A stretch of 64,000 bases of DNA, taken from positions 1 through 64,000 of the forward strand of contig NZ_VVIW01000012.1 of assembly GCF_011682045.1 (NCBI RefSeq), read 5' to 3'. The notes below the pieces were generated by a model that was not told the origin of the DNA, ran no database searches, and saw only the letters and a list, made by a program, of their open reading frames with translations. The translations under genes were made by a program, and so were the position numbers. Positions 2,611 through 48,744 of this stretch are shown one piece after another (the stretch's first letter is position 1; each line of letters opens with the position of its first letter). This DNA comes from Massilia aquatica (GTDB lineage: Bacteria > Pseudomonadota > Gammaproteobacteria > Burkholderiales > Burkholderiaceae_D).

Positions 2611-3264
2611 GTGCCTGGCTTCAGAATTGGTGCGCCTGCGCTGCCCGCGAAGGACATTGCCTATATCCGCGCGCTGGTGCGCCTGTTTTCATATTCGGAC
2701 AAACTGGACTGGTCGTTTGTCGACGCCGCGCCCTACACGGCCGTGGTGGCCGAAGCGCCGCCCGCAGCCAATCGGTCCGGCGCCATCGACGCGCTGCTGC
2801 TGACCATGCCCGGCCACGCCCAGCTCACCCAAAAGATTGCCTACCCGATCCGCGCCGACCAGCTACGCGACTGGCTCAAGCGCGTGGGCGACGCCCTGCT
2901 GCCGGCCGGCGCGCCAGCGAATGCGGCCAGCGCAAGCGCGGGGTACGCAGTGCGCTACAAGCTGCGCCGCTGGCCGTCGGTGCTGCAGCTCGATGGCGAT
3001 CCGCTGCGCATCCGCATGGCGACCCAGATGTCGCGCAAGGCGCTCAGCGCGGCCGACCTGGCCGGCCTGACCGGGGCCGACATCAGCGTGTGCGCCGGCT
3101 TCATCGGCGTGCTGCACACGGCCGGCCTGCTGGCCGAGGTGGCGGCGCCGCAAACGCCGGCGCCGGCGCCGGCCAGCACTGCCCCGGCGCCCGCCAGTCC
3201 CGCTGGATTTACCTCCAGCCTGCTTAACAACATACGCCGCCGCATTGGCTTGTCAGGAAAATAG
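2611..3264 (+). CDS. Uncharacterised protein, first gene of GTPase/roadblock module
   Basis: 217 aa, starting at a GTG six bases after a strong AAGGAG (2600-2605). I do not recognise the family with certainty. The region around residues 138-175 (SRKALSAADLAGLTGADISVCAGFIGVLHTAGLL, shown here as a composite of helices) looks like a winged-helix fold. It is followed by a Pro/Ala-rich linker and a short basic tail ending RRRIGLSGK. The gene ends three bases before a small GTPase gene and starts a four-gene run with two roadblock proteins. In actinobacterial conservons the matching slot is held by a winged-helix DUF742 protein; analogy with that is my inference. The tail could contact a membrane or a partner protein. 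Confidence 0.75.
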   Translation: MPGFRIGAPALPAKDIAYIRALVRLFSYSDKLDWSFVDAAPYTAVVAEAPPAANRSGAIDALLLTMPGHAQLTQKIAYPIRADQLRDWLKRVGDALLPAGAPANAASASAGYAVRYKLRRWPSVLQLDGDPLRIRMATQMSRKALSAADLAGLTGADISVCAGFIGVLHTAGLLAEVAAPQTPAPAPASTAPAPASPAGFTSSLLNNIRRRIGLSGK

Positions 3265-3267
3265 GCG

Positions 3268-3810
3268 ATGAAAGAATACAAAATACTGTTTACCGGCACC
3301 ATGGGCGCCGGTAAAACCACGGCCATCGCCGCCATCAGCGAAGTCGCGCCGATCGTCACCGACGTGCGCAATACCGATTCCTCGGTGGCCAAGGAACGCA
3401 CCACGGTCGGCCTCGACTACGGCCTGCTGACGCTGGAGAACGGCGACCGCATCCGCCTGTTCGGCACGCCGGGCCAGCAGCGCTTCGACTTTTTGTGGAA
3501 GATCCTGGCCAACAAGGCGCTCGGCCTGATCATCCTGACCGACAACTCGCGTCCCGATCCGCTGGCCGACCTGGGCATGTTCCTCGACGGCTTTGCCGAT
3601 GCCCTGGCAACGATGCCGTGCGCAATCGGCGTCGGACGCCTGGACAGCCATCCCGAGCCGAGCCTCGAGCGCTACGCCGACCTGCTTGAAGCGCGCGGCC
3701 TGGTGCTGCCGATCATCGCGGTCGATGTCCGCCGGCGCGACGATGTGACCCTGTTGATCGATACCCTGCTGGCGCAACTGGAAGCCGGCTTACTGGAAGA
3801 ACCCCAATGA
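3268..3810 (+). CDS. MglA/CvnD-like small GTPase
   Basis: 180 aa Ras-like GTP-binding protein. The P-loop is GTMGAGKTT (residues 10-18). The switch I region contains TTVGLDYG, and the G3 motif reads GTPGQQRF where most family members have DTPGQ. The NKxD motif is degenerate (GVGRLD). This matches the bacterial MglA-type/conservon GTPases rather than translation GTPases. It lies between an uncharacterised protein (3-bp gap) and a roadblock protein, whose ATG overlaps this stop as ATGA, so translation is coupled. Roadblock proteins act as GTPase-activating partners for this family, so the genes probably form one switch. The missing G3 aspartate may alter hydrolysis. Confidence 0.85.
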   Translation: MKEYKILFTGTMGAGKTTAIAAISEVAPIVTDVRNTDSSVAKERTTVGLDYGLLTLENGDRIRLFGTPGQQRFDFLWKILANKALGLIILTDNSRPDPLADLGMFLDGFADALATMPCAIGVGRLDSHPEPSLERYADLLEARGLVLPIIAVDVRRRDDVTLLIDTLLAQLEAGLLEEPQ

Positions 3811-4199
3811 ACGCCAACGACATGCTGCCGCCCGGCCTGCTGCAATCCGCCAACGACCTGGCCACGCAATTCCTGCGCGACATCAACGGCGTCACTGCCG
3901 TGGTGGTGGCCACGGTGGACGGCTTCGCGCTGGCCAGCGCGTTTAACGGCGACAACGATGCCGGGCGGATTGCCGCCATGGCCAGTTCGATTTCCGCCAT
4001 CGGTTCGGTGGTGGCGATGGAAGCGGGCCTGGGCACCTACCGCAGCGTGACCATCAATACCGAATCGGGATTCGTGGTGGTGCACGCGGTGCCGCGCCGC
4101 GACGTCGAGCTGGTCATCAACGTGATCGCCGACGGCAATGCCATCCTGGCCCAGGTGGTGCACCGGGTCGGCACCGTGGCGCGCCAGCTGGCTATCTAG
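3807..4199 (+). CDS. Roadblock/LC7 domain protein
   Basis: 130 aa, a single roadblock/LC7 domain. The typical strand-turn pattern is GVTAVVVATVDGFALASAF, followed by a long helix through the AAMASSISAIGSVVAMEAGLG region and a strand around YRSVTINTESGFVVVHAVP. In MglB and conservon proteins this fold dimerises and regulates the partner small GTPase. The start overlaps the GTPase stop by four bases (ATGA), which supports translational coupling and a direct functional link. It differs from the second roadblock protein downstream, so the two probably do not replace each other. Confidence 0.85.
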   Translation: MNANDMLPPGLLQSANDLATQFLRDINGVTAVVVATVDGFALASAFNGDNDAGRIAAMASSISAIGSVVAMEAGLGTYRSVTINTESGFVVVHAVPRRDVELVINVIADGNAILAQVVHRVGTVARQLAI

Positions 4200-4283
4200 C
4201 GCGCCACACTCCTGTTTTTCGAAATCAAGGAATCTTTGCGCAGCCTTGATCTTCGTTCTCCTGCGCATGAAGGAACGTTTGAT

Positions 4284-4643
4284 ATGGCAACGATTAAAGA
4301 AGCACTCGACAGCATCATGAGCATCGACGGCGCCCAGTGCTGCGCAGTGGTGGACTCGTCCAGCGGCATGATGCTCGGTAACGCCGGCGGCGGCATGGAT
4401 ATTGAAATCGCGGCGGCGGGCAACACCGAAGTGATGCGCGCCAAGCTCAAGACCATGAAGGCGCTGGGTTTGAACGACAGCATCGAAGACATGCTGATCA
4501 CCTTGGGCCACGCGTATCACATCCTGCGCCCGATGGCCAAACAGGAAGGCGTGTTCGTGTATGCCGTGCTGGACAAGGCAAAATCGAATTTGGCCATGGC
4601 GCGCCGCAAGATTGCGGAAGTCGAGAAAGAACTGACGTTTTAA
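4284..4643 (+). CDS. Second roadblock/LC7-like protein
   Basis: 119 aa when started at the ATG after AAGGAA (4270-4275); a longer TTG-initiated frame upstream is less likely because it lacks a ribosome-binding site. The sequence IDGAQCCAVVDSSSGMMLGNAGG followed by a long amphipathic helix fits the roadblock fold, with a helical C-terminus (RRKIAEVEKELTF). It is the last gene of the module, 84 bp after the first roadblock gene. It probably binds the GTPase or the other roadblock protein. The domain call is by pattern, and the partner is inferred from gene order. Confidence 0.8.
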   Translation: MATIKEALDSIMSIDGAQCCAVVDSSSGMMLGNAGGGMDIEIAAAGNTEVMRAKLKTMKALGLNDSIEDMLITLGHAYHILRPMAKQEGVFVYAVLDKAKSNLAMARRKIAEVEKELTF

Positions 4644-4688
4644 GTGCATCAACAGCACTGACATTTTAAGTAACCGCTGCCCTCACAT

Positions 4689-4780
4689 CGTCGTCCCCGC
4701 GAAGGCGGGGACCCATAGCACCTGTGATCAACGGTGCTATGGATCCCCGCCGAGGTCCGCCTTGGCGCGGGGACGACGGG
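4689..4780. repeat. Dispersed palindromic repeat, copy 2
   Basis: The most complete copy here. Its outer arms are CGTCGTCCCCGC and GCGGGGACGACG, with the inner pair CCATAGCACC / GGTGCTATGG. It sits between the roadblock gene and ubiA. The nested palindrome could form a cruciform or an RNA hairpin. Confidence 0.75.
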
Positions 4781-4876
4781 TAGGGTTAGCGGTCGGAAAA
4801 CGCTCCCCGCCCCACCCCGCCCCAAACACAGTAAAATCCCAGCCTCGCCCACGACAGTCGCGCCCGCGACCCGATC

Positions 4877-5731
4877 ATGAACAAGCTGTCGCTGTACTTC
4901 CGCCTGGTCCGCCTGGACAAGCCAATCGGCATCGTGCTGCTGCTCTGGCCCACCTTGATCGCCCTCTGGATCGCGGCGCGCGGCACCCCCGACCTGACCA
5001 TCCTGCTGATCTTCACCCTCGGCACCATCTTGATGCGCTCGGCCGGCTGCGCCATCAACGACTACGCCGACCGCGATATCGACAAGCACGTCAAGCGCAC
5101 CGCCGAACGTCCCCTCACCAGCGGACGCATCAAGAGCTGGGAAGCGCTGGCCGTGGCCGCCGTGCTGGCGATCGTCTCCTTCCTGCTGATCCTGCCGCTC
5201 AACACGCTCACCAAGCAGCTCTCGGTGGCAGCCGTTCTCATCGCCGGCAGCTACCCCTACTTCAAGCGCTTCTTCGCCATTCCCCAGGCGTATCTGGGCA
5301 TCGCCTTCGGCTTCGGCATCCCGATGGGCTTTGCCGCCGTGCTGGGCCAGGTCCCTGCCGTGGCCTGGTGGCTGCTGCTGGCGAACGTGTTCTGGGCCGT
5401 GGCCTACGACACCGAATACGCCATGGTCGACCGCGACGACGACCTCAAGATCGGCATCCGCACCTCGGCGATCACCTTCGGCCGCTTCGACGTGGCCGCC
5501 GTCATGCTGTGCTACGGCGCCGCGCTCGCCATCATTCTCGTGTGCGGCTGGCTCGAAGGCTTGCGCGCCTGGTTCGTCGGCGGCATTGCCGTGGCCGCCG
5601 CTATGGCGCTTTATCACTACACTTTGATCCGTGGCCGCGAGCGGATGGCTTGTTTTGCCGCTTTTCGCCACAACAATTGGTTGGGTGCGGCCCTTTTTGC
5701 CGGTGTGGCGTTAGACTACGCGTTCAGCTGA
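4877..5731 (+). CDS. ubiA: 4-hydroxybenzoate polyprenyltransferase
   Basis: 284 aa integral-membrane prenyltransferase that attaches the polyprenyl tail to 4-hydroxybenzoate in ubiquinone synthesis. Both Asp-rich motifs are present: [15 protein letters not shown] (about residues 57-71) and [13 protein letters not shown] (about 177-189). They bind the Mg-diphosphate of the prenyl donor. Several hydrophobic helices are evident, and length and order match UbiA. It is preceded by a dispersed repeat and stands alone, with no ubiC chorismate lyase next to it. Confidence 0.96.
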
Positions 5732-42211: not shown

Positions 42212-44164
42212 TCAGGGTGCGCGCTGCCCCGGCACAGGCCGCGCCAGGCCGCGCGCGACGGCGTCGCGCAGCACCTCGCGCATGACGCGCTCGGCCACCT
42301 TGCCTTGCCGGTCCATTTCGCGCCCCAGCACGTTCATCTGTTTTCCCAGCGCTTCCATCGGCTTGCCGGCCTCTTTCATCTGTTCGCCGATGGCGTCGAG
42401 CGGTGCGCGCGCCTGCTCGATCCTGCCGTGCTGGCGCTCGAGCTGCGCGTGCTGCACGTCGAGCTGGCGTTCGATGTCGGCCAGCTTGAGGTTGAGCCCG
42501 TCGCGCTGGCCCACCAGTTGCACCCGGGCGGCGCCAGCGGCGTCGTCGATCCGGCGTTCGAGCTGCACGATCTCGCGCTGCAAGCGCGCCTGCTGGGCCG
42601 CCAGCGCCGTCGTCAGGCCGGCGAGGCGGCGCGTTTCGGCATGCTCAGGATCGCCGGCGCCGGCCTTGCGTTCCATCTCGCGGCCCAGCTGCTCGACCAC
42701 CTTGCCGTGCTGTTCCATCTCCTTGCCATGCACGTCCATGCGCTCGCCGAGGCGCTTGAGCGGCTCATAGGCCGCGTTCGCCTTCGCGAGCAGGGCCGGG
42801 TCCTGCACGACGTAGGCCATGCCGCCCTGGCGGAACCACAAGAAGTCGCCGGCGACGGCGTGTTTGGCGGCGGCGATGTCGTCGATATCGCCGCTGTCGC
42901 CACTTAACATGCCTTTGCGTTCAGGCCCCTGCACCAGCGCATACGACATGTCGCCGGCGCCTTTGGCGATGCTCACCGGAGGGCGCGGCGGCGCCGGTGG
43001 TGCAGGCGGCGCAGGTGGCGCTGACAGCACCGGTGGCAGCGGCGCGATCTCCATCGGCGCGGCGGGAATGGTCCCTGCGGCGGGCGGCGCCGGGGGAGCC
43101 GGCGGCGCTGGCGGCACCATCGGCACACTGGCGGCGCGCGCCGCTTTGGCGGCCGCCAAAGGCGCCGTTTGCGCATTGGCGTAGAACGCGGCGCAGGCGG
43201 CCGACAAGCCGAGAATCGGCAGCGCCATCTTCCAGTTCAGTGGTTCGGTATCCGGGCGGACCAGGCGTTTGATGCGGGACATAAGATTTCCTCCGTGAGC
43301 CCCATGGGCGAGTTGAGGTGTGGAGAACTGGAACTGGTCCAGTTCGGATAAAGCAAGCGCCAGACGCCGCGGTTCGCCGAGCATGCTTGCTGCAATGTCA
43401 TCTGCAACCTGTTCGCGTTCGATCCGCACCCGGTGCGACAGCCACCACACCGCAGGGTGATAGAACAGCACGATGTCGATCGCGCTCTGGATCAGGTTGA
43501 CCAGGTAATCGAGGCGCTTGATGTGCGCCATTTCGTGGGCCAGCAGGGCTTCGAGCAGGTCGGGCGGCATGCCCGTGAGCAACGAGGCCGGCACCAGGAT
43601 CACCGGGCGCCACCAGCCGGCCGTGACCGGGCCGGGCAAGTCGTGCACCAGCCCCAGCGCGACCTTGCGCACCACGCCGAAACGCAGCGCCAGCCGGTCC
43701 ACCCGCGCCTGCCAGGCGGCATCGTGCACATAGCGGCCCGGCTGGCTGCGGCGCCGCACCCAGGCCAGCCCGAGCATCAGGCGCAGCGCCAGCAGGCCGG
43801 CGCCGCAGCTCCAGAACAGCATCAATAGCGGCAGGCGCTGCTGCAAGACCGGTTCCCAACTGGCCACCTGCGCGGCCAGCAACGGCGCGCCGGCATCGAT
43901 GGCGGGCATGCCGCCCGCGCCCAGCGCCAGGATGGTGGTGCCCGCCCCCCGGGCGTCGAGCACGCGCTGCACCGTGCCGGCCAGCGGCAAGGCGGCGCAC
44001 AGCAGCAGCGCGCCGCAGCCGACGGCGTAGCGCAGCTGCGGGCGCGCACCGCGCAGCAGTCCCATCGCGAGCGCGGCCAAGCAGCCGATCAGTACGCCCT
44101 GCCACACAAAATCGAGCAAGGCCCAGCCCAGGCTGGGCACGATGACGGCGAGCATGTCGTTCAT
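42212..44164 (-). CDS. M56 family (BlaR1-like) membrane metallopeptidase
   Basis: 650 aa. Four transmembrane segments in the first ~320 residues flank the zinc site HEMAH (HExxH) in EALLAHEMAHIKRLDY; the downstream EREQVADD likely gives the third ligand. After a Pro/Ala-rich linker (about 345-400) comes a periplasmic-type region with a long coiled coil (about 480-640). There is no penicillin-binding sensor domain, so it is not a classical beta-lactam receptor. M56 proteins usually cleave a BlaI-type repressor encoded next door, but none is here. It lies downstream of the lanthipeptide genes on the same strand, separated by 260 bp with its own promoter. Confidence 0.9.
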   Translation of the reverse strand: MNDMLAVIVPSLGWALLDFVWQGVLIGCLAALAMGLLRGARPQLRYAVGCGALLLCAALPLAGTVQRVLDARGAGTTILALGAGGMPAIDAGAPLLAAQVASWEPVLQQRLPLLMLFWSCGAGLLALRLMLGLAWVRRRSQPGRYVHDAAWQARVDRLALRFGVVRKVALGLVHDLPGPVTAGWWRPVILVPASLLTGMPPDLLEALLAHEMAHIKRLDYLVNLIQSAIDIVLFYHPAVWWLSHRVRIEREQVADDIAASMLGEPRRLALALSELDQFQFSTPQLAHGAHGGNLMSRIKRLVRPDTEPLNWKMALPILGLSAACAAFYANAQTAPLAAAKAARAASVPMVPPAPPAPPAPPAAGTIPAAPMEIAPLPPVLSAPPAPPAPPAPPRPPVSIAKGAGDMSYALVQGPERKGMLSGDSGDIDDIAAAKHAVAGDFLWFRQGGMAYVVQDPALLAKANAAYEPLKRLGERMDVHGKEMEQHGKVVEQLGREMERKAGAGDPEHAETRRLAGLTTALAAQQARLQREIVQLERRIDDAAGAARVQLVGQRDGLNLKLADIERQLDVQHAQLERQHGRIEQARAPLDAIGEQMKEAGKPMEALGKQMNVLGREMDRQGKVAERVMREVLRDAVARGLARPVPGQRAP

Positions 44165-44424: not shown

Positions 44425-47121
44425 CTATGGCAGCAGCGGAAACCCGAGCGCCGGAGCGTCCTCGCCCAGGCGCGCCAGGAAGTGCGCGATGCCACCCATG
44501 CCGACCATCAGGTCGGCGGTTGGCGCCACCGGATCTTCGGCCAGCCATACCAGGCTGCCGTCGGCGCAGCGGTGCCCGAGGTGGACGATGGTGCCGGCCA
44601 GGGTGAGCGCCTTGTCGCGCCATGCCGGCTCGCCCAGCGCCTGCGCCGCCTCCAGCAAGATCTCGCCGATCCCGGCCAGGCGGTGGCAGACGGTCAGGTT
44701 GGGCGCGCGCAGATGCGGATCGATGGCGTCCAGCGCGCGCCGCGCCAGCAGCGCCATGGCGGGGTCGCCGGTGAGCCGGTAGGCGCGCAGGAAGGTGAGC
44801 GCGATACCGGGCGCGCCGTGGCACCACCAGTGCCACGCGGCGCCCTGGCGGTCGCTGTAGCGCCACTGCAGCGCCGCCGTGCCGTCCACCGGCAAGGCAT
44901 GCCCCTCGAGCCAGCGCAAGCCGCGCGCGGCACTGGCGCGGCTACTGCGGTCATTGAAGCGCTCGCCATATTCAAGCAGGAAAAACACCATCCCGGCCAC
45001 GCCGTGGGCAAAGCCGCTCAGGGTTTCGCCGGACATGCCGGGCACGCCGTCCGGCATGACCCACGAGCCGTCGGGGGCCTGGGTGTCGACCAGATAGCGC
45101 GCGCAGCGCTGCGCCATGGCCAGCGGCGCGGGCGTGCCCAGGCTGTCGGCGCACATCATGGCGGCCAGGCCCTGCCCCGCCGCGCCGTGCGTGAGGTCGG
45201 GCCAGGTCACGGGCGCGGCGAACACGCGCTCGATCAGCTCGCCGATGCGCGGCGTGGCCGGCACCAGCCCGGCGCACACGGCTTCGGCGATGCCGACCGC
45301 CACGCCGGCATCGCCGAAGTGCAGGCCCGGCATGCCGCGGTCGGGCGTGATGGCGTCCGACAGCAGCCACTCGACGGCCGGCTTGAGCGCTGGCGCGGCG
45401 TCGTCCACGGCGATGCCGGCGCGTTGCAGGCGCGCCAGCGCGTACACCACGCCCGCCACGCCGCGGTTGGCGCCGCGCCGCAGTTCGTACGACGAAGCCT
45501 GTTCCTGGCCGCCGCCCGCATTCGCGATGCCCGCCGACAGCCACAATCCCGAGTGCGGATCGCGAAACGCGTGGCGCAGCAGGCCGAGGCCCGCAGCGTG
45601 GGCGCAGGCGGCAAAATCGATGGCCGGCGCCGCCGCCAGAACAGTGGCGCTTGGCGCGCAGCCCGTGCGCAGGCTGGCCTGGTAGGCCGCCAGTTGCTGC
45701 CCGATGGCCTCCAGCGTGGGCCGCGCCAGCGGGTCGTCGTCGACTCCGGCCAGCAGCACGTCAAGGAGCGCGTCGGGGACCGACGCGGCCAGGTGGCGCA
45801 CGTTGCGCGCGCGCGACTGGCCGCGCGCGAACAGGGTGCGGCGCGGATCGAGGCCGGTCAGGGCGAACAGGATCAGCGCCGCCACCGCATGGATGTCCTG
45901 GGCGAAGGTGGGTGCGGCGCCCGCTTCCTGTTCCGGCGCCATGAAGCCCGGCGTGCCCTTGCCGAACACGGGACTGGGGTCGCCCACGTGCTGCGCGATC
46001 TCCAGGTCGAGCAGCCAGGTGTTGCCGTCGTCGCCGAGCCAGACATTCGACACGCTCAGGTCGCGGTGCACGAAGCCGGCGCCGTGCAGGCGCTGGACCG
46101 CGTCGGCCAGCTGGCGCAGCGCTTCCAGCAGGCGCAGTTGGCCGGCGCGCCCGGCCGCGCTCCAGGGGCCGCGTTTCAGGGTCGCCTGGACCACGCTTTC
46201 GAGGTCGGCGCCGGCCAGGTAGGCCATCGGCAGATAGCCGTCGCCGCCGACCTCGAAGTACGGGTCGCACGCCGGCACCGGCACCGCGCCTTCCAGGCGC
46301 GCATGGATCTCGCCCTGGCGCCGCAGGCGCACCCGGATGTCGCGCCCGTGGAGGTCGGACAGGCAGTGCTTGCGCCCTTCCTTGATCACCCGGCCCGCCA
46401 CGCTGTCCTGCGAGCTGGCCAGGAGCGCCAGGTAGACATTGCCTTTGGCGTGCTGCTTGATGATGTCGACCAGTACATAGCCGGGGCCGAAGGTTGCGGG
46501 GCCGCCGGCGCCATGGGTGCCGGCGGGCGCGGGGACGGCGGCGCCCTCGAACGGGCAGGCGGCGAACGGCGGCGCCACGAAAGGCTGGGTGTAGGCGTCG
46601 GCGATGAGCTGGCCCGCGCCGTCGCGGATGTACAGGTGGTGCTGGCCGAGCAGGTCGCGCTCGACGATGGTGTTAAACCCCCCGTAGCGCGCGTACACCA
46701 GGTTCCCGAGCGCCATGTCGGACGTGATCACGGGGCCGTTGAAGCCTTGCGTGGCCTGCACCAGCTGCGCGGCGAGCGCGCTGGCGGCGGCGTCGTCGGC
46801 CGGGTAGATGGTGCAGAATTTGCCGACCTGGGTGGCGCCCAGGCCGCCTTCGTTGAGCAGTCCCAGCATGGTGGCGTCCCTGGCGATCTTGAATGGCACC
46901 CGGGCGGCGCGCAGGACGGGAACGATGGCGCCCAGCAGGGCGTGCGCCTCGGCCGGCACGCTGGACACGTGCAGCTTCCAGCCTTGCACGCGCTCGGTGC
47001 GGCCGACCTTGAGCCAGACGCCGCCGATGATGGGCGCGAGGCCCGCTTGCTGCAAATAGTGTTGGTAGGTCGGGGTGTCCGACAGTGCCCTGTCAGGTGA
47101 TGGGTTCATGGATGGGCTCAT
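44425..47121 (-). CDS. Three-domain lanthionine synthetase (class III/IV LanKC/LanL type)
   Basis: 898 aa RiPP-modifying enzyme. An N-terminal lyase domain (about 1-215) is followed by a Ser/Thr-kinase-like domain: Lys247 in GRVIKEGR, HRD at 352-354, Asn359, DLE in place of DFG at 372-374, and APE at 395-397. A C-terminal LanC cyclase starts near 500. The cyclase keeps Cys767 (WCHGAPG) and Cys812-His813 (VCHRLAGIGE), the zinc ligands of NisC. Class III enzymes usually lack them and class IV keep them. The enzyme would phosphorylate, dehydrate and cyclise Ser/Thr and Cys in the precursors. It overlaps precursor 1 by four bases (ATGA). M5 is an alternative start. Confidence 0.9.
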   Translation of the reverse strand: MSPSMNPSPDRALSDTPTYQHYLQQAGLAPIIGGVWLKVGRTERVQGWKLHVSSVPAEAHALLGAIVPVLRAARVPFKIARDATMLGLLNEGGLGATQVGKFCTIYPADDAAASALAAQLVQATQGFNGPVITSDMALGNLVYARYGGFNTIVERDLLGQHHLYIRDGAGQLIADAYTQPFVAPPFAACPFEGAAVPAPAGTHGAGGPATFGPGYVLVDIIKQHAKGNVYLALLASSQDSVAGRVIKEGRKHCLSDLHGRDIRVRLRRQGEIHARLEGAVPVPACDPYFEVGGDGYLPMAYLAGADLESVVQATLKRGPWSAAGRAGQLRLLEALRQLADAVQRLHGAGFVHRDLSVSNVWLGDDGNTWLLDLEIAQHVGDPSPVFGKGTPGFMAPEQEAGAAPTFAQDIHAVAALILFALTGLDPRRTLFARGQSRARNVRHLAASVPDALLDVLLAGVDDDPLARPTLEAIGQQLAAYQASLRTGCAPSATVLAAAPAIDFAACAHAAGLGLLRHAFRDPHSGLWLSAGIANAGGGQEQASSYELRRGANRGVAGVVYALARLQRAGIAVDDAAPALKPAVEWLLSDAITPDRGMPGLHFGDAGVAVGIAEAVCAGLVPATPRIGELIERVFAAPVTWPDLTHGAAGQGLAAMMCADSLGTPAPLAMAQRCARYLVDTQAPDGSWVMPDGVPGMSGETLSGFAHGVAGMVFFLLEYGERFNDRSSRASAARGLRWLEGHALPVDGTAALQWRYSDRQGAAWHWWCHGAPGIALTFLRAYRLTGDPAMALLARRALDAIDPHLRAPNLTVCHRLAGIGEILLEAAQALGEPAWRDKALTLAGTIVHLGHRCADGSLVWLAEDPVAPTADLMVGMGGIAHFLARLGEDAPALGFPLLP

Positions 47122-47492
47122 TTCCAGACGAAGAAGCGCGATTCGACATTGGTGGTGAAGCCGCAGCTGTCGCCGCAGGTATTACCGCAACTGAACTCGG
47201 TGCAGGTGACGTCGCAAGTCGAGCCGCCGCAGGTGACGCCGCCGCAGGTGTACGAGGTGCAGGAACAGGTATATTGCGGGCCGCAGGCTTGCAGCACGCG
47301 GTCGCGCTCCATCAGCGCGCTGGCGTCGGCGAGGAAGGCGCGCGCATCGACGGCGCGCATCGCGCGCCGCGTGGCGTCATCGAGGTAGGGCAGCGTGGCC
47401 AGCGCGGCGGCCGGGTTGCTGAGGAAGGTCTGGAACAATTCTGCGTTGCCACGCAGCTCGCCGACCAGGCGGGCGAAAGTGGTTCTGTCCAT
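47118..47492 (-). CDS. Lanthipeptide precursor 1 (Cys-rich)
   Basis: 124 aa from ATG 47492 (MDRTTFARLVGEL). The leader-like N-terminus (about 1-65) is helical, with the RiPP pattern F..LVGEL..N.ELF..FLSNP. The C-terminal third has ten Cys (residues 70, 76, 78, 83, 88, 93, 97, 102, 106 and 110), mostly preceded by Ser or Thr, as in YTCGGVTCGGSTCDVTC. The end SCGNTCGDSCGFTTN matches the end of both cores in precursor 2. The tail NVESRFFVWK is aromatic. Its stop overlaps the synthetase start. The leader/core boundary is not defined by a GG motif. Confidence 0.82.
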   Translation of the reverse strand: MDRTTFARLVGELRGNAELFQTFLSNPAAALATLPYLDDATRRAMRAVDARAFLADASALMERDRVLQACGPQYTCSCTSYTCGGVTCGGSTCDVTCTEFSCGNTCGDSCGFTTNVESRFFVWK

Positions 47493-47566
47493 GGCGGACT
47501 CCTTGTGCGGGTGATGCGGGGCCGAAAAGCGACGCGCCACCGCGAAGCGGCGCGTCGCCCTGCCGC

Positions 47567-48010
47567 TTAGCGGTTCCAGGCGGCCGGATTGATGACCACA
47601 TTACCCATGTCGGTAATGTTGGTGGTGTAGCCGCAGCTTTCGCCGCAGGTGTTGTCGCAGCTGCTCGAACAGGTATTGCCGCAGCGTTGCAATGAACCGC
47701 TCGCGCGCGAGAAGTAATCGACGGCGGGCGTGCTGATCGCCATCTCGGCGGTCAGGTTGGTGGTGTAGCCGCAGCTGCCGCCGCAGGTGTTGTCGCAGCT
47801 GCTCGAGCAGGTATTGCCGCAGCCGCGCGAGACGCCGATGGCGCGCGCGATCAGGGCAGCCGGATCCTGGCCGACCAGCGCGCCTTTGGCCTGGCGGTCA
47901 AGATCGCTCACCTGGGCGATGATGGTTTCGGGCGAAAAGATCAGCTGATGGAAAAACGCGGGATCGGATTTGGCCTTTTCGACCAGGCTCTGGAATACTT
48001 TGGGATCCAT
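47567..48010 (-). CDS. Lanthipeptide precursor 2 with two tandem cores
   Basis: 147 aa from ATG 48010, preceded by GGAGGT eight bases upstream. Leader-like helix about 1-60 (FQSLVEKAKSDPAFFHQLIF). Two nearly identical 22-residue units follow at residues 64-85 and 110-131: CGNTCSSSCDNTCGGSCGYT then TN, the second with Gly77/78-region Gly changed to Glu (CGES). Cys residues are at 64, 68, 72, 76, 80 and 110, 114, 118, 122, 126, an exact four-residue period. A 24-residue spacer (LTAEMAISTP..) joins them. First gene of the locus, 74 bp before precursor 1. The synthetase downstream makes it a likely substrate. Confidence 0.82.
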   Translation of the reverse strand: MDPKVFQSLVEKAKSDPAFFHQLIFSPETIIAQVSDLDRQAKGALVGQDPAALIARAIGVSRGCGNTCSSSCDNTCGGSCGYTTNLTAEMAISTPAVDYFSRASGSLQRCGNTCSSSCDNTCGESCGYTTNITDMGNVVINPAAWNR

Positions 48011-48041: not shown

Positions 48042-48081
48042 GGGGTGCACTTGCAAATTGACTACGGACGTACGGCACCCC
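48042..48081. promoter_or_regulatory. Inverted repeat upstream of the lanthipeptide genes
   Basis: GGGGTGC (48042-48048) and GCACCCC (48075-48081) flank a 26-bp loop, 32 bp upstream of the precursor 2 start. It lies in the 218-bp gap to the divergent DUF4240 gene and could be an operator or a leader hairpin. No clear promoter was identified. Confidence 0.35.
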
Positions 48082-48228
48082 GGGAAGTTCAATATAGGTC
48101 CGCATGACGGCGCGGTTTTTGATCGTGCCCAAACCCGGACTTGCGTACGGCGGTGTCCGGCCTGGCTGGTTTTCAGCGGCGGCGGCACGTCCGTTAGAAT
48201 GCCTGGTGGCATACATTTCACTAGGGAG

Positions 48229-48744
48229 ATGAACTTGGAAAAGAAGGATTTCTGGCAATTGATCGATGCCTCGCGCCTGGCTGCGGACAACGATCCCAAC
48301 GCGCAGGTCGACACGCTCGGCGCGTTGCTGCTGCAACTGGAAGCGGACCAGATCGTCGAATTCGACCGCGTGATGGTCGAGCACGTCAATCGCGCGTATC
48401 ACTGGGATGTATGGGCGGCGGGGTACATCATCGGCGGCGGCTGCTCGGACGATGGCTTCATGGATTTCATGGGGTGGCTGATCAGCAAAGGCGAACAGGT
48501 GTTCGAAACCGCGCTGCGCGATGCGGACAGCCTGGCCGACGTGGTCGAGGAGATCGACGGCGAATGCCAGGTCGAAGGAATCCTGTACGCGCCCGGCAAG
48601 GCATGGGAGCGAAAAACCGGACGCCCCGGCGGCGACTTCCCGCAACACATGTTCGCGTTCCAGAATGGCCCGCATGGCGAAAGCTGGGACGAGGACGAGG
48701 TCGACGCCAGGCTGCCGCGCCTGGCCGCCAGGTTCAACGGCTGA
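48229..48744 (+). CDS. DUF4240 domain protein
   Basis: 171 aa from ATG 48229 (MNLEKKDFWQLIDASR), just after AGGGAG. The frame extends upstream to 48058, but that part is non-conserved in character. The N-terminal KKDFWQLIDASRLAADNDP, LEADQIVEFDRVM and WAAGYIIGGGCSDDGFMDF segments are the DUF4240 signature. The C-terminus is acidic. Members are small cytoplasmic proteins of unknown role, some near immunity-type genes. It is divergent from the lanthipeptide locus, but a functional link is not established. Confidence 0.85.
   Translation: MNLEKKDFWQLIDASRLAADNDPNAQVDTLGALLLQLEADQIVEFDRVMVEHVNRAYHWDVWAAGYIIGGGCSDDGFMDFMGWLISKGEQVFETALRDADSLADVVEEIDGECQVEGILYAPGKAWERKTGRPGGDFPQHMFAFQNGPHGESWDEDEVDARLPRLAARFNG

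What the first reader, a model, noticed from the sequence alone, without database searches (positions are those of the whole stretch)
44425..48010. A compact lanthipeptide locus in a betaproteobacterium
Two Cys-rich precursor genes and a lyase-kinase-cyclase synthetase form a tight minus-strand run: precursor 2, 74 bp, precursor 1, then a 4-bp overlap with the synthetase. Class III/IV systems are best known from Actinobacteria. Leader-like helices, Ser/Thr-Cys-dense cores and translational coupling support a genuine RiPP pathway. The core sequence family is not one I recognise.
Basis: partly seen in the sequence, partly recalled or inferred. Interest (0 to 1): 0.85.

Follow-up and report, generated by a model that had tools for sequence, protein, structure and literature searches.

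The report
Three-gene lanthipeptide cassette in Massilia
A soil bacterium carries a three-gene cassette, seemingly for making sulfur-bridged peptides, from a proteobacterial branch of a kind known mainly from actinobacteria; no product has been seen yet.

Summary
On the minus strand at 44425-48010 lie two Cys-rich precursor genes (147 and 124 aa) and an 898-aa lyase-kinase-cyclase synthetase, with the stated 74-bp gap and 4-bp ATGA overlap. The same three genes occur in the same order in 6 of 17 genomes of the genus, between the same neighbours; a seventh, G010, has those neighbours 319 bp apart and no cassette. A homologous pair (precursor with the same doubled core, then synthetase, 41% identity) lies on a plasmid of the alphaproteobacterium Haematobacter massiliensis. 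The synthetase keeps lyase, kinase and zinc-cyclase residues and groups with class IV (LanL), not class III, but on a long branch and far below NCBI's LanL cut-off. Between the two bacteria all 13 Ser/Thr/Cys positions of the 22-residue core keep their kind (one Ser is Thr), while 6 of the other 9 change (p = 0.001). The precursors reach no Pfam, NCBIfam or PHROGs cut-off and carry a long, perhaps distantly NHLP-like, leader and repeated cores. I read this as a new class IV-like lanthipeptide lineage. Chemistry, export and activity are untested.

The parts
47567..48010 (-). Precursor 2, 147 aa: about 63-aa leader, core CGNTCSSSCDNTCGGSCGYTTN (residues 64-85), spacer, second core CGNTCSSSCDNTCGESCGYTTN (110-131), short tail
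   Evidence: homologue on the Haematobacter plasmid
47118..47492 (-). Precursor 1, 124 aa: about 69-aa leader, 46-aa core with 10 Cys whose last 23 residues align with the same core plus one residue
44425..47121 (-). Class IV-like lanthionine synthetase, 898 aa: RamC_N lyase 39-194, kinase 226-428, LANC_like cyclase 554-888
47118..47121 (-). ATGA overlap of the precursor 1 stop and the synthetase start
   Evidence: kept in the six genus members; absent in Haematobacter, where the gap is 77 bp

Best explanation
A self-contained three-gene lanthipeptide cassette of a proteobacterial, class IV-like lineage. The long leader of each precursor brings it to the synthetase. The kinase domain phosphorylates core Ser/Thr, the RamC-type lyase removes phosphate to give Dha/Dhb, and the zinc LanC domain adds Cys thiols to close (methyl)lanthionine rings. 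The core is a lattice in which nearly every Cys directly follows a Ser or Thr at steps of four or five residues; I infer a ladder of overlapping rings (for example Thr67-Cys72, Ser71-Cys76, Thr75-Cys80). The first Cys of the core has no conserved Ser/Thr just before it, so it stays free or closes backwards onto the terminal Thr-Thr. Because the core is repeated in precursor 2 and present again in precursor 1, one operon would give three core copies. No exporter or peptidase lies in the cassette, so leader removal and export must use genes elsewhere, or the product acts inside the cell. Shown: genes, conservation, catalytic and zinc residues, clade, presence/absence unit. Inferred: dehydration, rings, processing, function.
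For: Domains over cut-off; class IV model 512 bits against class III 311. Six of eight lyase residues named for ThurKC kept (K49, H51, K78, K101, D135, R145; mapped, named in PMC10604976). Kinase K247, D354, N359, D372, E374 and zinc ligands C767, C812, H813 in 7 of 7 clade members; C-C-H in 5 of 5 class IV and 0 of 14 class III references, all 19 references being over their class cut-off. Tree: clade 100/100, split from class III 100/100. Homologous precursor beside 7 of 7 synthetases. Ser/Thr/Cys lattice kept across two proteobacterial classes while residues between change, p = 0.0011. Purifying selection on cores. Three-gene presence/absence at one site.
Against: No product, dehydration or ring has been observed. 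The class IV score (512-551 bits in five clade members) is about half that of the five true LanL references (1062-1216) and no higher than some class III proteins reach on that model (561 for L070; 538 for L116), so only the gap between the two models, the zinc ligands and the tree speak for class IV. Long branches meet in the tree. ThurKC K108 and R191 align to Gly and Tyr. The window's own protein has CHR where the other six have CHG beside the zinc ligand, which could weaken this copy. No exporter or peptidase gene in the cassette. AlphaFold models were poor (mean pLDDT 40 and 48), so neither leader fold nor active-site geometry was tested.
Confidence: 0.87

Rival explanations
1. Cys-rich metal-binding proteins (metallothionein-like) beside a kinase-type synthetase that regulates them or acts on something else.
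For: Cys every four residues in the core; weak match of all six precursor 2 homologues to a Cys-rich repeat model (TIGR04114, best E 0.047); no exporter in the cassette.
Against: All eight Ser/Thr positions of the core are kept in kind, like the five Cys, across two classes of proteobacteria, which metal binding does not need. Lyase and zinc-cyclase residues are kept. Precursor and synthetase occur together.
Confidence: 0.06
2. Dehydration-dominant product: the synthetase makes Dha/Dhb, but few rings form, and the Cys stay free or pair as disulfides.
For: Lyase and kinase residues are kept; the window's own copy has CHR beside the zinc ligand; a lyase-kinase protein without a LanC domain exists on a Salipiger plasmid.
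Against: Zinc ligands C-C-H are kept in 7 of 7, and CHG in the other six.
Confidence: 0.05
3. Class III LanKC-type locus making labionin.
For: Same three-domain layout; class III loci occur in the same taxonomic family; the class IV score alone does not exclude it (561 bits for the class III protein L070).
Against: Zinc ligands present, unlike 14 of 14 class III references; no LxLQ motif in three precursors examined; class III score 311, under the 575 cut-off that all 14 references pass.
Confidence: 0.02

Closest known systems
Class IV lanthionine synthetase LanL (NCBIfam NF038150)
   Same: Lyase-kinase-LanC order, zinc ligands C-C-H, groups together against class III
   Different: 512-551 bits in five clade members against 1062-1216 in five LanL references and a 650 cut-off; long separate branch (1.72 changes per column); precursors upstream and 124-147 aa, not the 39-aa ALQxL peptides downstream of lanL in Kitasatospora
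Class III LanKC loci of the same family and order
   Same: Lyase and kinase residues at the sites compared
   Different: Zinc ligands absent in 10 of 10; short LxLQ-leader precursors seen at 6 of 10 loci; 10 of 10 exceed the class III cut-off
Haematobacter massiliensis plasmid pOT1-4 genes WP_131389806.1 and WP_035712020.1
   Same: Same precursor plan with doubled core, same gene order, 41% identical synthetase
   Different: One precursor, 77-bp gap, different neighbours; precursor annotated only as hypothetical protein
NHLP / Os1348-type leader families
   Same: Both leaders together align with the KLA.DD.FR..LL.DP stretch of Os1348-type peptides: profile E 3e-4, probability 40%, score 24.7 against at most 15.1 in 30 column-shuffled controls
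   Different: Below every curated cut-off (16.7 of 40 bits); each leader alone reaches only 7% and 11%; the Haematobacter precursor hits no model; no Gly-Gly end. Distant kinship at most

Membership tests
Class IV lanthipeptide synthetase (LanL) | One protein with RamC/OspF-type lyase, Ser/Thr kinase and LanC domains | tested here: met
   Pfam RamC_N, Pkinase, LANC_like over cut-off (same for Haematobacter)
Class IV lanthipeptide synthetase (LanL) | Zinc ligands Cys-Cys-His in the cyclase domain, absent in class III | tested here: met
   C767, C812, H813 in 7 of 7; 5 of 5 class IV; 0 of 14 class III
Class IV lanthipeptide synthetase (LanL) | Score over NCBI's LanL equivalog cut-off (650 bits) | tested here: not met
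   512 bits; 524-538 in three relatives scored; 551 in Haematobacter; five references 1062-1216
Class IV lanthipeptide synthetase (LanL) | Groups with LanL apart from LanKC | tested here: met
   26-row tree, split 100/100, unrooted and with a warning that long branches meet
Class IV lanthipeptide | Precursor of an annotated class IV type (ALQxL family) | tested here: not met
   No ALQxL or LxLQ in three precursors; no NCBIfam family over cut-off
Lanthipeptide | (Methyl)lanthionine in the product | not testable with these tools
   No mass spectrometry
Class III lanthipeptide (LanKC) | Cyclase without zinc ligands; LxLQ leader; over the class III cut-off | tested here: not met
NHLP / Os1348 leader family | Leader over the curated cut-off | tested here: not met
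   16.7 bits of 40; 6 of 6 precursor 2 homologues hit it weakly, best E 0.0039, and 2 of 6 hit NHLP; profile comparison E 3e-4

The most novel reading that the evidence does not exclude
A deep proteobacterial branch of kinase-lyase-cyclase synthetases whose substrates are protein-like, NHLP-type leaders carrying tandem cores, each folded into a ladder of overlapping (methyl)lanthionines, and whose product is used without a dedicated exporter. From recall, and from the passages seen, I know of no NHLP-type leader shown to be handled by a class III or IV enzyme.
Probability: 0.3. Interest if true: 0.68.

Novelty: new variant of a known kind. Interest (0 to 1): 0.52.

Why it matters
Few class IV lanthipeptides are characterised: four by the count of PMC9576775 (passages), the only one there from outside Actinomycetota coming from the myxobacterium Chondromyces crocatus. 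This lineage extends the type to alpha- and betaproteobacteria with precursors that a large survey would have left out, since it discarded ORFs over 120 aa (PMC7268733, passages). The strict Ser/Thr/Cys lattice, repeated cores and two-to-three-gene size make it a handy system for testing how a kinase-type synthetase reads a long leader and orders many adjacent rings.

Tried and rejected
The neighbouring M56 peptidase gene (42212-44164; Pfam) was considered as leader peptidase. It is present with the same alcohol dehydrogenase neighbour in G010, which lacks the cassette, and none is annotated within 10 kb of the Haematobacter pair (that gene table is incomplete), so I treat it as a bystander. 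The DUF4240 gene (ORF 48058-48744, from 48229 if it starts at the inner ATG) is missing between dehydrogenase and precursor in G013 and G004, so it is not part of the unit either.

Two weak precursor hits outside the genus (G597, G271) were looked at: among ORFs of 50 aa or more with 5 or more Cys none looks like a precursor. AlphaFold with 10 and 5 rows gave poor models; no fold search was run on them. The polarity of the presence/absence (gain, or loss in G010) was not determined. GC is 0.72-0.75 over the synthetase, about 0.63-0.65 to the right and 0.65-0.70 over the M56 gene to the left, which proves nothing about origin. PHROGs gave no hit at E 0.1 for three precursors; padloc was not searched.

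Literature searches for a prior description: (no paper). None of the listed titles or abstract starts describes this locus; most listed papers were not opened. PMC12350317 (passages) mentions two expressed class IV-type clusters in Greenland ice metagenomes whose organism I did not see; PMC10676384 (passages) mentions a class III/IV-like kinase in a Cystobacter cluster of another peptide class. Either could touch this lineage. Most subscription papers are not held.
Full report
WHAT IS THERE. On the minus strand the window holds precursor 2 (48010-47567, 147 aa), a 74-bp gap, precursor 1 (47492-47118, 124 aa) and, overlapping by ATGA, an 898-aa protein (47121-44425). Precursor 2 is a leader of about 63 residues, the core CGNTCSSSCDNTCGGSCGYTTN, a 24-residue spacer, the core again with one change, and a short tail. 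Precursor 1 has a homologous leader (profile comparison E 3e-8) and a 46-residue core with 10 Cys whose end aligns with the same core plus one residue.

THE SYNTHETASE. Pfam gives RamC_N (39-194), Pkinase (226-428) and LANC_like (554-888), all over cut-off. NCBIfam's class IV model scores 512 bits and the class III model 311; both miss their cut-offs (650, 575). Three relatives score 524-538 on the class IV model and Haematobacter 551. This is about half of what five LanL references score (1062-1216), and some class III proteins reach as much on that model (561 for L070; 538 for L116). Against this, those class III proteins score higher on their own model, and the window clade does not. The best match among solved structures is the sequence of entry 8car, over residues 33-889, E 3e-51, followed by class III LanKC entries. 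Of eight lyase residues named for ThurKC in PMC10604976 (section 9 read), six are kept: K49, H51, K78, K101, D135, R145; two are not, K108 to Gly and R191 to Tyr, the latter in a gappy stretch. The zinc ligands that ThurKC has lost (same paper, passages) are here Cys767, Cys812, His813.

THE TREE. In a 26-row tree (7 of this clade, 5 class IV, 14 class III) the clade is supported 100/100, class IV 97/96, and class III is split from the rest 100/100. All 19 references are over the cut-off of their own class. The clade sits on a branch of 1.72 changes per column, the tree is unrooted, and the program warns that long branches meet, so 'class IV-like' is safer than 'class IV'. C-C-H is present in 7 of 7 clade members and 5 of 5 class IV, and in 0 of 14 class III. 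The six lyase and the kinase residues compared are the same in all 26 rows, so they speak for activity, not class. The window protein alone of the seven has CHR instead of CHG after the last ligand.

DISTRIBUTION. RamC_N was found in 6 of 17 genomes of the genus, 13 of 392 of the family sample, 2 of 399 of the order sample and 1 of 398 of the phylum sample; each count includes the window's own genome. The six genus genomes carry the window type; L007 to L010 are Massilia mucilaginosa, rubra, frigida and atriviolacea, the sixth is G013 (L060). The other ten loci (L058, L059, L070-L077) are class III: 10 of 10 exceed the class III cut-off, and short precursors with an LxLQ leader were seen beside 6 of the 10. 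G004 carries both kinds. The precursor 2 profile hit 8 of 343 family genomes: the six above, and two weak hits that did not hold up.

AN INDEPENDENT PAIR. Among 72,556 plasmid records one, Haematobacter massiliensis pOT1-4, has a relative of precursor 2 (49.6% identity over 1-135, E 2e-32), 77 bp before a relative of the synthetase (41% over 901 positions; layout). Its core, CDVTCTSSCGATCAQSCGYTTN, is also doubled. Compared with the Massilia core, all 13 Ser/Thr/Cys positions keep their kind (one Ser to Thr) while 6 of the 9 others change; the chance that no change falls on the 13 is 0.0011. Neighbours differ: ArsR, SRPBCC proteins, TRAP and ectoine transport genes, IS elements. No peptide exporter or peptidase is annotated there, in a gene table that is incomplete.

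THE UNIT. In six genomes the cassette lies between an alcohol dehydrogenase gene and an M56 peptidase gene (Pfam). G010 has both genes, 319 bp between the matches, and no cassette. BLAST of that empty site against G013 shows homology ending at the dehydrogenase end and resuming about 100 bp on, with some 4.3 kb in between, of which the two precursors and the synthetase fill about 3.9 kb. The unit is thus three genes, gained there or lost in G010. In G013 precursor 1 is a 250-aa leader-core-leader-core protein with a degenerate first core, which suggests that leader and core behave as a module.

SELECTION. Core 1 has 0 nonsynonymous changes in 5 of 5 comparisons with the window, core 2 has 0, 0, 1, 0, 1, while the spacer has 3, 8, 18.5, 11.5 and 16.3. 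For the 46-residue core of precursor 1, three comparisons (L007, L008, L010; L009 and L060 were left out) give 1, 1 and 2.

LEADER. All six precursor 2 homologues hit the Os1348 NHLP-clan model weakly (best E 0.0039, cut-off not reached), and two hit the NHLP model. A profile of both leaders against eleven Os1348-type proteins of the same family gives E 3e-4, probability 40%, score 24.7 against a maximum of 15.1 in 30 column-shuffled controls; each leader alone gives 7% and 11%. That is distant, suggestive kinship only. The Haematobacter precursor hit no model. The low-confidence model of precursor 2 is helical over residues 3-62 (pLDDT about 44-60).

HOW IT LIKELY WORKS. Leader-guided phosphorylation, elimination and zinc-assisted cyclisation on cores in which Cys follows Ser/Thr at steps of four or five. 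In the precursor 1 core 9 of 10 Cys follow Ser/Thr (2 of 20,000 shuffles reach this); in the 22-residue cores 4 of 5 do, which alone is weak (about 800 of 20,000). The ring ladder is inference. Export and processing are unknown.

KNOWN OR NEW. A survey of class III/IV loci reports most from Actinobacteria and Firmicutes (PMC7268733, section 9 read) and discarded ORFs over 120 aa (passages), so both window precursors would have been left out. One class IV product from a myxobacterium is in print (PMC9576775, passages). I found no description of this lineage. I file it as a new variant: class IV-like, not a member of NCBI's LanL equivalog as now drawn.

Noticed in passing
L114:4587-7631 (Salipiger sp. 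CCB-MM3 plasmid NZ_CP014600.1): A 528-aa protein with RamC_N and kinase but no LanC domain in Pfam, preceded by a 91-aa ORF with a Thr-rich end (CTCHSRTVITTSTPLCTTTTTTTSA) and no Pfam match, followed by a methyltransferase: possibly a dehydration-only RiPP.
   Followed up: partly
L113:1877-5517 (Rhodococcus oxybenzonivorans pRB98): A 135-aa ORF with a Cys-rich end (DCCCSSCCFTCSMATQVTGCTSTFVQ) two genes before a LanC-family synthetase, which is annotated at 3604-5517 though the match begins near 3001: another long-leader precursor candidate.
   Followed up: partly
L058, L059, L070-L077: Ten class III LanKC loci in Burkholderiales, in more than one group of the tree, six of them with LxLQ precursors in view.
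   Followed up: partly
L060:8502-9254 (G013): Precursor 1 orthologue fused as leader-core-leader-core, with a degenerate first core.
   Followed up: partly
window 44680-44682 (synthetase residue 814): The window's synthetase alone of the seven has Arg after the zinc-ligand His (CHR for CHG), a private change that may weaken this copy.
   Followed up: no
G000:C5:120989-121117 and 49 other genomes of 294: The Os1348 NHLP-clan model hits 50 of 294 genomes of the family at E 1e-3, 9 over cut-off; several of the fetched ones are peptides of about 84-94 aa ending near PFLLSG, while many weak hits lie in longer ORFs. No modifying enzyme was checked.
   Followed up: no
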